Below, piece after piece: positions 43,109 to 50,238 of a stretch of DNA of 64,000 nt (positions are counted from its first letter, which is position 1; each line of letters begins with the position of its first letter). This DNA comes from Halorussus gelatinilyticus (GTDB lineage: Archaea > Halobacteriota > Halobacteria > Halobacteriales > Haladaptataceae), in assembly GCF_023238445.1 (NCBI RefSeq), contig NZ_CP096658.1:1860001-1924000 (forward strand), given 5' to 3'. A program made the position numbers and the translations under genes. The notes beneath the pieces were generated by a model, which was given only the letters and a program-made list of their open reading frames with translations, made no database searches and was not told where the DNA came from.

Positions 43109-43130
43109 CGAGTCAACCGCCGCGTTTGGG

Positions 43131-43261
43131 TGGACTGAAAGGGGCCGGTCGCTGGCGTACAGTTCAGTCGTCTGAGCGACCACTATCCGGGCCGGGTGGT
43201 GCGGAGAGGCCCGGATATGTCGCTCAGACGACTGCCAGCGACCGGGGGCTTTCTAAGCCTT
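43131..43261 (-). repeat. Compound palindrome, copy A
   Basis: Outer arms CCGGTCGCTGGC (43145-43156) and GCCAGCGACCGG (43234-43245) pair perfectly. Inner arms AGTCGTCTGAGCGAC (43166-43180) and its exact complement at 43219-43233 pair over 15 bases, and a third perfect stem (TATCCGGGCC/GGCCCGGATA) lies at the tip. Flanks read GAAAGCCCC on one side and GGCCCCTTTC on the other (minus strand). Orientation is opposite to the copies at 46.4 and 59.9 kb. Confidence 0.85.
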
Positions 43262-43346: not shown

Positions 43347-44573
43347 TCACTCCGACCACGTCACGTTCCGCGTCATGACGAACACGAGCAGGGCCATCAG
43401 CAGTTGGCCGAACAGCGCCTCCGCGGCCGCGATGGCCTGCGCGCCGAACAGGACCGGTTGCATGTCGCCGTACCCCAGCGTGGCGAAGGTCACGACGCTG
43501 AAGTAGAGGCTGTGGAGGAACACCACGAAGTTGTAGCGCAGTCCCATGCGGGTGTTGAAGGTGTACTCGACGGGCGTCCCGCTCGGCGTACCGGCGTGGA
43601 CTTCGCCCAACAGCGGGAACAGGACGGCGCAGACGACGATGACGCCCGCGGCCGTGGCGATGACCCGCCACGGGTTCGACCCGTAGCCGGTCGTCCAGCG
43701 CCACGCCTCCTTGGCCAGCGCGCGGGGGTAGGAGCCGTACTCCCACGCCTCGCGCCGGCGCACGTCCTTCTGCTGGAGGTAGTAGTTCCGCGAGGCCGCG
43801 GTCAGACCGTTCTCTTGGGTGAGTCGCTGGAGTTCCTTGTAGGTCCAGTGAGACGCTTCGTAGCGGGTCATCCGGTCGCCGCCGCTCTCGTGCTTGCGCC
43901 GGACGCGGAGAGACGTGATGCCGTCGTCCTCGGCGTCGAGAAGTTCGTCCTCGTAGACGACGTTGTTGCCGAAGTTGGTGGACTCGTCGATGCGGGCGTT
44001 GTCGAAGACGGCGTAGTGGAGGCGCGCGCCACAGAGGTCGGCCTCCCGGAGGTCGGTGCGGTGGAACTCGGTGTGTTCGAGGTTCGACCCGCGGAGGTTC
44101 ACCGACTGGGCGTCCACGCCCTCGAAGTGGGAGTACCGGAGGTCGCACCCGCTCAAGTCGGTCTCTTCGAGGTTACAGTTGACGAACCGGGCGTCGGTGA
44201 TGGTCCGGCCGGCGAGCCAATCGGCCCCCGAAAGCTCCACGTCGCGGAAGATGGCCCCGTCGAGTCGGTCGCCGACGCTCGGCGCGGCGTCCTCCAGTTC
44301 GCGCGAGGGTTTCTGGGCCACGTCGGCGTGCCAGATGCACCGGTCGGTGTCGCCCCAGACCGGCCGCCAGCAACAGACCCCGCCGAGACCCGTCACCGCG
44401 CTGGCCTCGTGGGTGTAGCCGCATCGCCCCTCGGCGGTCGTCGGGCGCTCGTCAGCGACGCCTGCCGTCCGCTCTTCGTCCGCGTCCGCGCTCCGCTCGC
44501 CGTCTGCACCCCGCGGTTGCTCTTCGGGGACACCCCCCGACTCGCCGGGCGCGGACTGCGTCTCGCCAGACAT
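43347..44573 (-). CDS. Pentapeptide-repeat potassium channel fusion
   Basis: 408 aa. An acidic N-terminal tail (1-45) is followed by a Cys/His-rich segment (CGYTHEAS, then CCWRPVWGD and CIWHAD) that may bind zinc. Pentapeptide repeats follow at about 100-195 (FRDVELSGADWLAG, FVNCNLEETDLSGCDL, HTEFHRTDLREADLCGA), forming a right-handed beta helix. A linker (about 215-300) leads to two membrane helices around a pore loop with the selectivity filter TLGYGD (VTFATLGYGDMQP). It is a two-TM K+ channel whose cytoplasmic N-terminal part could be a regulatory module. Single gene. Confidence 0.88.
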   Translation of the reverse strand: MSGETQSAPGESGGVPEEQPRGADGERSADADEERTAGVADERPTTAEGRCGYTHEASAVTGLGGVCCWRPVWGDTDRCIWHADVAQKPSRELEDAAPSVGDRLDGAIFRDVELSGADWLAGRTITDARFVNCNLEETDLSGCDLRYSHFEGVDAQSVNLRGSNLEHTEFHRTDLREADLCGARLHYAVFDNARIDESTNFGNNVVYEDELLDAEDDGITSLRVRRKHESGGDRMTRYEASHWTYKELQRLTQENGLTAASRNYYLQQKDVRRREAWEYGSYPRALAKEAWRWTTGYGSNPWRVIATAAGVIVVCAVLFPLLGEVHAGTPSGTPVEYTFNTRMGLRYNFVVFLHSLYFSVVTFATLGYGDMQPVLFGAQAIAAAEALFGQLLMALLVFVMTRNVTWSE

Positions 44574-46380: not shown

Positions 46381-46514
46381 GAACGCCTCGAAAGCCCCGG
46401 TCGCTGGCGGTCGCTCGGCGACATCTCCTCGGCTCACTTCGTTCGCCTCGGAGAGGGGTCGCCGAGACGACCACGCAAACGCCAGCGACCGGCCCCTTTA
46501 CCCCGCCCACGGTA
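46381..46514 (+). repeat. Compound palindrome, copy B
   Basis: Outer arms CCGGTCGCTGGCG (46397-46409) and CGCCAGCGACCGG (46480-46492) pair perfectly over 13 bases. Inner arms GGTCGCTCGGCGAC (46409-46422) and GTCGCCGAGACGACC (46458-46472) pair with a single bulged base. Flanks read GAACGCCTCGAAAGCCCC and GGCCCCTTTACCCCGCCCACGG. The inner stem differs from copies A and C in matched pairs. Confidence 0.85.
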
Positions 46515-46596: not shown

Positions 46597-46665
46597 TCCT
46601 CGCAGGGTCTGACCTTCGACTCGAAACCCGGCTTTTGATAACCTGTGACACCTTACGACCGGGCG

Positions 46666-48195
46666 ATGTCAAGCGAAGCCGCCGACGAGGCGTCCGAGAC
46701 GTACTCGGAGTTCATCGACAGGGTAGAGCGACTGACGAACCTCGGGCACGCCGGGGGCGTCCTCGGTTGGGACCAAGAGGTCATGATGCCCGAGGGCGGC
46801 ACGCCCGCCCGCTCGAAGCAGCGCTCGGCGATCTCGACCGTGACCCACGAACTGCTCACCTCCGACGAGATGGCCGCGGCGCTGGACGACCTCGAAGCCG
46901 GCGAGCTGTCCGACGAGCGAGCGTCGGTCGTCCGCGAGGTCCGGCGCCAACACGACCGGGCCGCGAGCGTGCCGCAGGACCTCGTGGAGGAGATTTCCGA
47001 GGTCTCGTCGGAGGCGATGCCGGTCTGGCAGGAGGCCAAGGAGGAGGACGACTTCTCGAAGTTCGCGCCGACGCTCGAACGACTGGTCGAACTCAAGCGC
47101 GAGTACGCCGAACACATCGACCCCGACCGGGACCCCTACGAAGTCCTCTTCGAGGAGTACGAGCCGTATCTCGGCGTGGACACCGCCGAGCGCGTCCTCG
47201 AACGACTCCGCGAGGAACTGGTCCCGCTCGTCGAGGCGGTCCGGGAGTCCGACGCCGACCTCGCCACCGACACCTTCGAGGGTGAGTTCGACACCGACAC
47301 CCAAGAGGACCTCGCGCGCGACGTGCTGGACACGCTGGGCTACGACTGGGACCACGGCCGTCTGGACACCGCGCCCCACCCCTTCTCGTCGGGCAACCAG
47401 TTCGACGCCCGCGTCACCACGCGCTTCTCGCCCGACGAACCGCTCGGCGCGCTGATGGCGACGGTCCACGAGTTCGGCCACGCGACCTACACCCTCGGTC
47501 TCCCCCGCGAGGAGTACGGCACGCCGCTGGGCAAGTCGCGGGACATGACCGTCCACGAGTCCCAGTCGCGCCTCTGGGAGAACCACGTCGGGCGCTCGCG
47601 AGCGTTCTGGGAGCGCTTCCTGCCGAAGGTGAAAGAGCGGTTCCCCGAGAAGCTGTCCGACGCCAGCGTGGACGACGTGTACGAGGCCGCAAACGAGGTC
47701 TACGAGGACAACCTCATCCGGGTCGAGGCGGACGAACTCACCTACCACATGCACATCATCGTCCGGTTCGAAATCGAGCGCGACCTGATTCGTGGCGACC
47801 TCGACGTCGAGGACGTGCCCGAGGTCTGGAACGACAAGTACGAGGAGTATCTGGGCATCCGCCCAGACTCCGACGCCGAGGGCTGTCTCCAGGACATCCA
47901 CTGGAGCCACGGCGACTTCGGTTACTTCCCGACCTACTCGCTCGGGAGCGTGCTGGCGACCCAACTGTACGCCAGCGCCGAGGAGGACATCGAGAATATC
48001 GACGAGAAGGTTGCGGAAGGCGACTTCGACCCGCTCCACGACTGGCTGACCGAGAACGTCCACCGGCACGGCTGTCGGTACACCACCGACGAACTGATTC
48101 GGCAGGCGACCGGCGAGGACTACACCGCCGACTACTTCCTCGACTACGTGAAGTCGAAGTACGGCGAGCTGTACGAACTGGACGACTACCAGTAA
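46666..48195 (+). CDS. Carboxypeptidase M32 (Taq-type), paralogue 1
   Basis: 509 aa from the ATG at 46666. It is a cytoplasmic zinc carboxypeptidase with the active-site motif HEFGH in ATVHEFGHATYTLGL, the conserved ESQSRLWENHVGRS segment, and the later EADELTYHMHIIVRFEIER and HGCRYTTDELI motifs of M32 enzymes. N-terminal MPEGGTPARSKQ is characteristic of the family. A closely related copy lies 560 bp downstream (about 60 percent identity by eye); a broken gene lies between them. Confidence 0.95.
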   Translation: MSSEAADEASETYSEFIDRVERLTNLGHAGGVLGWDQEVMMPEGGTPARSKQRSAISTVTHELLTSDEMAAALDDLEAGELSDERASVVREVRRQHDRAASVPQDLVEEISEVSSEAMPVWQEAKEEDDFSKFAPTLERLVELKREYAEHIDPDRDPYEVLFEEYEPYLGVDTAERVLERLREELVPLVEAVRESDADLATDTFEGEFDTDTQEDLARDVLDTLGYDWDHGRLDTAPHPFSSGNQFDARVTTRFSPDEPLGALMATVHEFGHATYTLGLPREEYGTPLGKSRDMTVHESQSRLWENHVGRSRAFWERFLPKVKERFPEKLSDASVDDVYEAANEVYEDNLIRVEADELTYHMHIIVRFEIERDLIRGDLDVEDVPEVWNDKYEEYLGIRPDSDAEGCLQDIHWSHGDFGYFPTYSLGSVLATQLYASAEEDIENIDEKVAEGDFDPLHDWLTENVHRHGCRYTTDELIRQATGEDYTADYFLDYVKSKYGELYELDDYQ

Positions 48196-48756: not shown

Positions 48757-50238
48757 ATGGCCGACGCGTACGACGACTTACTCGACCGATACCGGCGAAT
48801 CACCGCGCTACAGGACGGCGGCGGCGTCCTCTACTGGGACCAACAGGTGATGATGCCCGAGGGCGGCACGCCCGCTCGCTCGAAGCAACTCTCGGCGCTC
48901 TCGGGAGTCACCCACGAGCAACTGACCGCCGACGAGACCGGGCGACTGCTCGACGCCGCCGAGGACGAGGAGCTATCCGACGAGCAGTCGGCGGCCGTCC
49001 GCGAGATTCGCCGCGAGTACGACCGGGCGACGAAGGTGCCCGAGGAACTGGTCGAGGAACACACCCGTCTCCAGTCGGAGGCCCAAGACGACTGGCGCGA
49101 GGCGAAGGCCAACGACGACTTCTCGGCGTTCGAGCCGATTCTCTCGGACCTGCTCGACCTCCGCGTCGAGAAGGCCCAGCACATCGACCCCGACCGCGAC
49201 CCCTACGAAGTCATGTTCGAGGACCGCGAGCCGTACCTCGAACTCGACACGGTAGAGCGCATCTTCGACGAACTGAAGGACGGACTCGTCCCGCTCATCG
49301 AGGACATCCGAGCCAGCGAGGGGATTCCGGACACCTTCGAGGGCGAGTTCGACACCGACGCCCAAGAGGCCCTCTCGCGCGACGTGCTGGACCTGCTGGA
49401 CTACGACTGGGACCGCGGCCGCCTCGACACCTCGGCCCACCCGTTCATGTCGGGCACGCAGTTCGACGCCCGCATCACGACCCGATTCGACGAGACCGAC
49501 CTGCTGGGCGCGGTCAGTTCGACCGTCCACGAGTTCGGCCACGCGACCTACGCGCTCGGACTCAGCGACGACGCCTACGGCACGCCGCTCGGCGAGTCGC
49601 GCTCCAGCGGCGTCCACGAGTCCCAGTCGCGCTTCTGGGAGAACCACGTCGGCCGGACGAAGGAGTTCTGGGAACTCGTCCTGCCGACCGTGAAAGACCG
49701 CTTCCCGCAGGTCTCGGACGTGACGCCCGAGCAGGCCTACCGGACCGCCAACCGCATCGAGTCGGACAACCTGATTCGGACCGAGGCCGACGAACTCACC
49801 TACCACATGCACATCATCCTCCGGTCGGAGATAGAGCGCGAGTTCGTCAGCGGCGACCTCGCGGTGAGCGAGATTCCGGCCGCGTGGAACGACAAGATGG
49901 AGGAGTACCTCGGAATCCGGCCCGACACCGACGCGGAGGGCTGTCTCCAGGACATCCACTGGACCGGCGGGTTCGCCAGCTTCCAGAACTACACGGTCGG
50001 GAGCGTCCTCGCGGCCCAGCTCTGGGCGACCATCGAAGAAGAACTGGACGACCCCCGCGGTCTCATCGCCGAGGGCGACTTCCGGCCCATCCGCGACTGG
50101 CTGACCGAGAACGTCCACCGGCACGGCTGTCGGTACACCACCGACGAACTGATTCGGCGGGCGACCGGCGAGGACCTGACCGCCGACTACTTCCTCGACT
50201 ACGCCGAGGAGAAGTTCGGCGAGATTTACGACCTGTAG
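48757..50238 (+). CDS. Carboxypeptidase M32 (Taq-type), paralogue 2
   Basis: 493 aa. It carries the same motifs as the upstream paralogue: MPEGGTPARSKQL, HEFGH in SSTVHEFGHATYALGL, ESQSRFWENHVGRTKEFWE, EADELTYHMHIILRSEIEREF and HGCRYTTDELIRRATGED. It is shorter by about 16 residues, mainly at the N terminus and at the C-terminal DDYQ. The two copies are tandem and in the same direction, so a gene duplication is likely, with divergence throughout rather than a recent copy. Confidence 0.95.
   Translation: MADAYDDLLDRYRRITALQDGGGVLYWDQQVMMPEGGTPARSKQLSALSGVTHEQLTADETGRLLDAAEDEELSDEQSAAVREIRREYDRATKVPEELVEEHTRLQSEAQDDWREAKANDDFSAFEPILSDLLDLRVEKAQHIDPDRDPYEVMFEDREPYLELDTVERIFDELKDGLVPLIEDIRASEGIPDTFEGEFDTDAQEALSRDVLDLLDYDWDRGRLDTSAHPFMSGTQFDARITTRFDETDLLGAVSSTVHEFGHATYALGLSDDAYGTPLGESRSSGVHESQSRFWENHVGRTKEFWELVLPTVKDRFPQVSDVTPEQAYRTANRIESDNLIRTEADELTYHMHIILRSEIEREFVSGDLAVSEIPAAWNDKMEEYLGIRPDTDAEGCLQDIHWTGGFASFQNYTVGSVLAAQLWATIEEELDDPRGLIAEGDFRPIRDWLTENVHRHGCRYTTDELIRRATGEDLTADYFLDYAEEKFGEIYDL

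What the first reader, a model, noticed from the sequence alone, without database searches (positions are those of the whole stretch)
43347..44573. Potassium channel fused to pentapeptide repeats and a Cys/His cluster
A beta-helix of pentapeptide repeats and a possible zinc site precede a two-TM pore with TLGYGD. Pentapeptide repeats are not a usual gating module for K+ channels. The cytoplasmic helix could sense a ligand or metal, or link the channel to another protein in a potassium-accumulating halophile.
Basis: partly seen in the sequence, partly recalled or inferred. Interest (0 to 1): 0.5.

Follow-up and report, generated by a model that had tools for sequence, protein, structure and literature searches.

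The report
Haloarchaeal K+ channel with pentapeptide sensor
A salt-loving archaeon carries a potassium-type channel whose inside part is a small metal-finger-like motif plus a spiral "pentapeptide" domain; the layout is real and recurs in many haloarchaea, and it most resembles HalA, a bacterial anti-virus channel, but its own trigger is unknown.

Summary
Window 43347-44573 (- strand) encodes 408 aa: acidic tail, Cys/His motif (C51-x16-C68-x10-C79-x2-H82), pentapeptide beta-helix (about 104-203), helical linker, two-TM pore with TLGYGD. The architecture is no oddity: 56 of 392 genomes sampled in the order hold a near-full-length match (rows listed, recounted), and relatives occur in bacteria, on plasmids and in a phage contig. 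The Cys/His motif, unnamed by Pfam and NCBIfam here, is in 51 of 58 relatives against 44 of 11,600 shuffles and is about as constrained as the pore. Among the 50 Foldseek rows shown per model, the only channel is HalA, the DNA-repressed channel of the Hailong anti-phage system, aligned along the whole model (PDB 9nyi). Membership in Hailong is not met: HalA model 19.5 bits (cut-off 250), no HalB above cut-off in the genome. Best reading: a tetrameric K+ channel gated by an N-terminal C3H + beta-helix sensor of unknown ligand, kept in place beside housekeeping genes in Halorussus. Ligand, metal, tetramer and gating are untested.

The parts
43347..44573 (-). CDS, 408 aa: C3H motif + pentapeptide beta-helix + helical linker + 2-TM K+ channel
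44427..44573 (-). Acidic, low-constraint N-terminal tail (residues 1-49); short in the aligned sequences of other genera, with the starts that I chose
44328..44423 (-). Putative C3H zinc motif, C51-x16-C68-x10-C79-x2-H82
43965..44264 (-). Pentapeptide-repeat beta-helix, about residues 104-203, five coils in the model
43674..43862 (-). Linker, residues 238-300: helical hairpin (Y-[RK]-x-L ... RR) and the pre-TM1 signature YG-x-x-P-W-R-V
43608..43673 (-). TM1, residues 301-322
43464..43526 (-). Pore helix and selectivity filter TLGYGD (filter 43464-43481)
43371..43448 (-). TM2, about residues 376-401, with conserved E385 and G389; the chain ends about 7 residues later, so no C-terminal gating domain follows

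Best explanation
It is a homotetrameric (inferred from the 2-TM pore) K+-selective channel of the cytoplasmic membrane. The cytoplasmic N-terminal half, a C3H zinc-finger-like motif next to a pentapeptide beta-helix, is the only candidate gating domain, because the chain ends right after TM2. Four beta-helices would stand over the inner mouth and, through the helical hairpin and the YGxxPWRV segment before TM1, hold the gate shut until a ligand binds or leaves, in the manner of HalA, which is repressed by bound DNA. In a cell full of potassium, opening would let K+ run out or equilibrate, giving osmotic relief or growth arrest. Shown: domains, conservation, purifying selection, lack of HalB above cut-off. 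Inferred: tetramer, conduction, zinc, gating. Unknown: the ligand.
For: Pfam domains. Filter TLG[YF]GD, E385 and G389 in 30 of 30 core orthologues; G389 lies 19 residues after the filter Asp, as recalled for KcsA G99. Beta-helix and 2-TM topology in two AlphaFold2 models. C3H motif in 51 of 58 relatives against 44 of 11,600 shuffles (the 58 include near-copies). Omega 0.14-0.28 over the gene in five orthologue pairs and 0-0.16 in the C3H stretch. The sensor half occurs with other outputs: a pleolipovirus protein has the C3H pattern and pentapeptides but no ion-channel match, and 5 of 21 long accessory relatives keep the fold signatures but have broken filters, which suggests a separable sensor module. 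HalA (PDB 9nyi) aligns over 348 and 347 columns with the two models.
Against: No ligand, metal, current or oligomer was tested. AlphaFold2 confidence is modest (mean pLDDT 56.7 and 68.3, pTM 0.37 and 0.44), and the C3H stretch is unresolved (pLDDT under 50). The HalA match has TM-scores of 0.21-0.28 and rmsd 15-18, so only the order of domains matches, not their arrangement. By sequence the HalA model gives 19.5 bits (E 4.5e-4) to the whole protein, only its pentapeptide part in the genome search (E 0.03), and no match at E 0.1 to residues 205-408 alone. One Halorussus relative (L019) lost C51 and C79 yet keeps the rest. Six of 18 genomes of the genus lack a near-full-length match. Three of the five omega pairs share members, and the segments are short (17-100 codons), so segment values are rough.
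Confidence: 0.55

Rival explanations
1. A HalA-like antiviral effector that acts alone: the beta-helix senses a virus-made change and the opened channel drains K+, stopping the infected cell.
For: The only channel among the Foldseek rows shown is HalA. Relatives sit on haloarchaeal plasmids and in an IMG/VR phage contig beside a gene that I read as a helix-turn-helix repressor; a sensor-half relative lies between the integrase and rep genes of a pleolipovirus. Four of 23 accessory loci, three of them with broken filters, share a nearby gene with nSTAND-NTPase and TPR matches, a kind of protein recalled from defence systems.
Against: The window copy keeps the same neighbours (PRK13764-type ATPase, M20 and M32 peptidases) in 6 of 6 Halorussus loci examined. 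No HalB above cut-off in the genome or in 22 relatives. PADLOC 2023 has no match for the window protein. Core orthologues keep a standard filter, 30 of 30, while accessory ones vary.
Confidence: 0.2
2. An ordinary K+ leak or osmotic-release channel in which the beta-helix is only a rigid tether or docking face for another protein, not a gate.
For: Pentapeptide beta-helices are known protein-docking folds (Qnr, MfpA on gyrase; recalled). Conserved gene order in Halorussus and purifying selection fit a physiological role.
Against: No partner gene conserved between core-clade genera. The linker hairpin and pre-TM1 segment hold many invariant residues, which suits mechanical coupling better than a loose tether.
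Confidence: 0.2
3. Not a conducting K+ channel in this lineage: a membrane-anchored sensor that keeps the pore fold for assembly only.
For: 5 of 21 long accessory relatives have TIMDG, TGFSG or GLGYGP in place of the filter, and one paralogue type has GLG.
Against: The window protein and all 30 core orthologues in the alignment keep TLG[YF]GD.
Confidence: 0.05

Closest known systems
HalA, effector channel of the Hailong anti-phage system (PDB 9nyi; NCBIfam NF051894)
   Same: Pentapeptide repeats followed by a C-terminal ion-channel domain in one chain of similar length: NF051894 positions about 43-147 are hit by pentapeptide proteins and about 204-338 by the channel ends of relatives of this family. 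Foldseek aligns 9nyi_A along the whole model.
   Different: Far below the HalA cut-off (19.5 against 250 bits); no HalB above cut-off; housekeeping neighbours; C3H motif on the N-terminal side (whether HalA has one was not tested).
Haloarchaeal and bacterial proteins annotated 'pentapeptide repeat-containing protein' or 'potassium channel family protein'
   Same: Same order of domains, linker and pre-TM1 signature; near-full-length match in 56 of 392 genomes sampled in the order.
   Different: Long accessory relatives have more pentapeptides, and 5 of 21 have a broken filter.
KcsA/Kv-type K+ channel pore (Ion_trans_2)
   Same: Pore helix, TxGYGD-type filter, TM2 glycine; Pfam E 8.5e-10.
   Different: No voltage sensor, RCK or cyclic-nucleotide domain was found by Pfam; the extra domain is N-terminal.
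Pentapeptide proteins HetL and MfpA
   Same: Beta-helix fold: VIA-align Z 16.1 and 18.9 for HetL (rmsd 1.7 and 2.1 over 119 and 120 residues), 14.3 and 17.3 for MfpA 2bm4_A (rmsd 1.1 and 2.5 over 98 and 108).
   Different: Soluble proteins without a membrane pore (recalled).

Membership tests
Pentapeptide repeat family (PF00805) | Tandem five-residue repeats folding as a beta-helix | tested here: met
   63.7 bits against cut-off 20.2; register test; models
K+ channel, Ion_trans_2 (PF07885) | TM1 - pore helix - TxGYGD filter - TM2 | tested here: met
   38.8 bits against cut-off 22.5; filter conserved in 30 of 30 core orthologues
K+ channel, Ion_trans_2 (PF07885) | Tetramer that conducts K+ | not testable with these tools
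   monomer prediction only; no electrophysiology
Hailong anti-phage system | HalA above the curated model cut-off | tested here: not met
   19.5 bits against 250
Hailong anti-phage system | Adjacent HalB nucleotidyltransferase | tested here: not met
   no nucleotidyltransferase family named among ten scanned neighbours; best HalB match in the genome 22 bits against cut-off 190, over 29 residues, 1.04 Mb away (12 of 14 control genomes ring too)
Hailong anti-phage system | Pentapeptide part followed by channel part in one chain | tested here: met
   Foldseek 9nyi_A E 2e-5 and 5.1e-5 over 348 and 347 columns; low TM-scores, so order of domains only
Hailong anti-phage system | Channel repressed by oligo-dA DNA | not testable with these tools
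   -
C3H zinc finger (C-x(9-16)-C-x(9-15)-C-x2-H) | Conserved ligand residues | tested here: met
   27 of 28 haloarchaeal sequences keep all four; looser pattern in 51 of 58 relatives
C3H zinc finger (C-x(9-16)-C-x(9-15)-C-x2-H) | Binds zinc | not testable with these tools
   -

The most novel reading that the evidence does not exclude
The C3H finger plus pentapeptide beta-helix is a portable sensor for a nucleic acid or nucleotide-like signal, shared by haloarchaeal chromosomes, plasmids, a pleolipovirus and gammaproteobacteria, and the window protein is an archaeal ligand-gated K+ channel that works like HalA without HalB, with its signal made elsewhere in the cell.
Probability: 0.15. Interest if true: 0.7.

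Novelty: new variant of a known kind. Interest (0 to 1): 0.4.

Why it matters
Prokaryotic K+ channels with a known cytoplasmic gate mostly carry C-terminal RCK or cyclic-nucleotide domains (recalled). Here a family puts a putative zinc finger and a beta-helix of the DNA-mimic type in front of the pore, and one cousin by architecture (HalA) is gated by DNA. The haloarchaeal clade is a place to ask whether HalA's mechanism arose from ordinary K+ channels or the reverse, and what opens K+ channels in cells that hold very high potassium.

Tried and rejected
Chance fusion, frame error or assembly artefact: rejected, because the order of domains recurs in syntenic orthologues and is under purifying selection.

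Membership in Hailong: rejected on two tested features. HalB in genomes with accessory relatives: 0 of 22 have a match over the cut-off; 13 of 22 have weak matches, 25-80 residues long and mostly under 40, and 5 of 14 controls ring too.

A conserved gene partner: none shared between the window and 13 loci of other genera, except weak ABC-ATPase matches (25-28%) in three. Four to five of the 16 loci share a neighbourhood of their own (glycosyl and transport genes), which I read as local synteny of one family. Four of 23 accessory loci share an nSTAND/TPR gene in differing orientation and distance.

True HalA sequences to compare with: not found. The HalA model reached its cut-off in 0 of 369 genomes sampled in one class around a gammaproteobacterial genome, and sequence searches of the PDB did not list 9nyi among the rows shown (in all but 66 only the best 60 are shown). 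HalA was not among the 50 rows of VIA-align, which is inconclusive.

Viral relatives: A1 and P0001 gave none in viral contigs; P0003 gave one. Foldseek against viral models gave mostly pentapeptide proteins among the 50 rows shown.

Literature: searches for pentapeptide repeat with potassium channel and archaea, ion channel and tetramer, Ion_trans_2, anti-phage and transmembrane, haloarchaea, and pentapeptide with beta-helix listed no paper that I could recognise, by title, abstract start or passages, as treating this channel family. The Hailong paper (Tan 2025) is not held; its crown-domain account is recalled, and the DNA-blocking statement rests on passages of PMC13275509 and PMC12657230.

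The report was checked once against the calls: the count of near-full-length genomes was raised from 54 to 56 and the C3H count set to 27 of 28, and three further calls were made.

Full report
OBSERVATION. Window 43347-44573 on the minus strand is one open frame of 408 codons. Pfam places pentapeptide repeats at about 125-198 (PF00805 E 1.1e-17; PF13599 E 7.8e-13) and an Ion_trans_2 pore at 350-403 (E 8.5e-10). In residues 104-203, 13 of 20 positions of one register are L or F, a count that 0 of 20,000 shuffles reached. The filter TLGYGD is at 43464-43481. Hydropathy shows two TM peaks and a pore-helix peak. The chain ends about 7 residues after TM2, so no RCK or nucleotide-binding domain follows. 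The genome has seven Ion_trans_2 matches, six over the cut-off.

THE CYS/HIS CLUSTER. In 28 haloarchaeal sequences C68 and H82 are invariant, C51 and C79 are kept in 27, and all four in 27; L019 lost both C51 and C79. C67 (26 of 28) and H55 (11 of 28) vary, so the likely ligands are C51, C68, C79 and H82. Over 58 relatives, near-copies included, a looser pattern is found in the first 140 residues of 51; the seven misses are L019, L114, L123, L124, L084, L086 and L088. L123 has a match further in, and L114 has only the last Cys and His after its called start. Shuffled N-termini matched 44 times in 11,600. Two gammaproteobacterial relatives have a tighter form, C-x9-C-x9-C-x2-H. Neither Pfam nor NCBIfam matched the stretch in the window protein at E 1; in the Aeromonas relative NCBIfam weakly matches the N-terminal domain of haloarchaeal GvpO there (E 0.008). 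A likeness to the plant WRC finger is recalled only.

STRUCTURE. AlphaFold2 with five sequences gave mean pLDDT 56.7, pTM 0.37; blocks of ten from residue 101 to 200 have pLDDT 65-89, and the first 100 residues are under 50. A second job on residues 88-408 with six sequences gave mean pLDDT 68.3, pTM 0.44, with five coils, a helical hairpin, an interface helix, TM1, pore helix and TM2. Foldseek's best matches are pentapeptide proteins. Among the 50 rows shown of 758 and 775, PDB 9nyi_A (HalA with oligodeoxyadenylate) is the only channel, over 348 and 347 columns, E 2e-5 and 5.1e-5, identity 14 and 11%. Its TM-scores are low (0.21-0.28), so this supports a shared order of domains, not a shared arrangement; an SV2A row spans 326 columns, which shows that long alignments of this kind can be loose.

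HALA COMPARISON. NCBIfam NF051894 matches the window protein at 19.5 bits, E 4.5e-4, over 109-402, but in the genome search only its pentapeptide part scored (14.1 bits, E 0.03), and residues 205-408 alone gave no match at 0.1. Close orthologues score no better (L010 E 0.014, L028 E 0.069). Some relatives match better: L043 40.1 bits over 252-521, L086 35.7 bits and L004 34.8 bits over the channel end. None of the proteins scanned reaches 250 bits. HalB (NF051895) has no match over its cut-off in the genome (22 bits, 29 residues) or in 22 relatives. From passages read: HalB poly-dA adducts block the HalA ion channel (PMC13275509), and phage exonuclease activity lifts the suppression (PMC12657230).

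DISTRIBUTION. 138 of 392 genomes sampled in the order match at E <= 1e-10, in 52 of 95 genera; in the listed rows 56 genomes have a match from residue 66 or earlier to 402 or later (recounted; the list is cut at its weak end). Within the genus 12 of 18 genomes have such a match. In plasmids 31 records match, 12 over at least 80% of the query; in phages 12 match, none over 80%. In one class sampled around a gammaproteobacterial genome, 28 of 274 genomes match an Aeromonas relative at 1e-6, one of them along its whole length; two more of those loci (L086, L088) also carry pentapeptides and a pore without the C3H pattern. A tree of the linker-pore part puts the 31 core rows, the GLG type included, in one starred group (100/97) and the 12 Halorussus rows in another (100/94); several rows have long branches, so the deeper order is unsure.

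CONTEXT AND SELECTION. In 6 of 6 Halorussus loci examined (L001-L003, L053-L055) the gene keeps the same neighbours: an ATPase with PIN, T2SSE and KH domains (PRK13764; below the PINA cut-off) on one side, M20 and M32 peptidases on the other. Thirteen loci of other genera share none of this beyond weak ABC-ATPase matches. Five orthologue pairs, three of which share members, give omega 0.14-0.28 overall; C3H 0-0.16, beta-helix 0.10-0.29, pore and TM2 0-0.22, against 0.07-0.60 for the tail and 0.37-0.87 for the outer loop. So finger, helix and pore are all under constraint.

MECHANISM. With nothing after TM2, the N-terminal half is the only candidate gate. Invariant non-pore residues cluster in the linker (W243, Y245, N255, R273, A276, W277) and the pre-TM1 segment (W293, Y297, G298, P301, V304), as expected if the sensor pulls on TM1. 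A sensor half of the same kind appears without a K+ pore in a pleolipovirus protein, and with broken filters in five long accessory relatives (L111, L117, L118, L119, L124). I therefore read it as a separable sensor feeding different membrane outputs. The ligand is unknown; DNA or a nucleotide is suggested only by HalA. The core clade looks physiological in Halorussus (kept in place among housekeeping genes), while accessory relatives lie on plasmids and in viruses, and four of 23 lie near an nSTAND/TPR gene.

VERDICT. Observation confirmed; interpretation partly supported; a variant of a known kind (pentapeptide-bearing ion channels, HalA being the solved one), with a conserved, unnamed C3H motif and a wide haloarchaeal clade as the new parts. 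Tan et al. 2025 was not readable here; its crown-domain account is recalled.

Noticed in passing
43130-43260 and about 46390-46499: A palindromic element of about 125 bp (nested inverted repeats) just 3' of the channel gene; 11 matches in the genome at 69-100% identity including itself, two of them in this window on either side of the channel and M20 genes: MITE- or REP-like.
   Followed up: partly
G000:C1:1705347-1706442 (L008 1543-2596): A paralogue elsewhere in the genome is split between two frames and has the filter TLGLGD; an intact relative with the same TLGLGD lies on a Halorussus limi plasmid (L041).
   Followed up: partly
L111, L117, L119, L118, L124: Long haloarchaeal pentapeptide-channel relatives whose selectivity filter is replaced (TIMDG, TGFSG, GLGYGP) while E385 and G389 of TM2 stay.
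   Followed up: partly
L119:1064-4210, L114:439-3435, L117:3881-5365, L111:3491-4054: Four accessory loci, three of them with the TIMDG filter, share a nearby gene; the two long versions scanned match nSTAND_NTPase5 and TPR families. Orientation and distance to the channel gene differ, so a partnership is not shown.
   Followed up: partly
L084:5800-6645: An IMG/VR contig encodes a 281-aa pentapeptide + 2-TM channel (TIGYGD) next to a gene that I read as a helix-turn-helix repressor.
   Followed up: no
L040:5968-7284 (Haloarcula virus Harhisp1): Pleolipovirus protein with a similar Cys/His pattern, pentapeptides and an annotated C-terminal TM stretch, lying between integrase and rep genes.
   Followed up: partly
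46645-48195 and 48757-50238: Two neighbouring carboxypeptidase-Taq (M32) genes in tandem, PF02074 E 8e-172 and 1.1e-162.
   Followed up: partly
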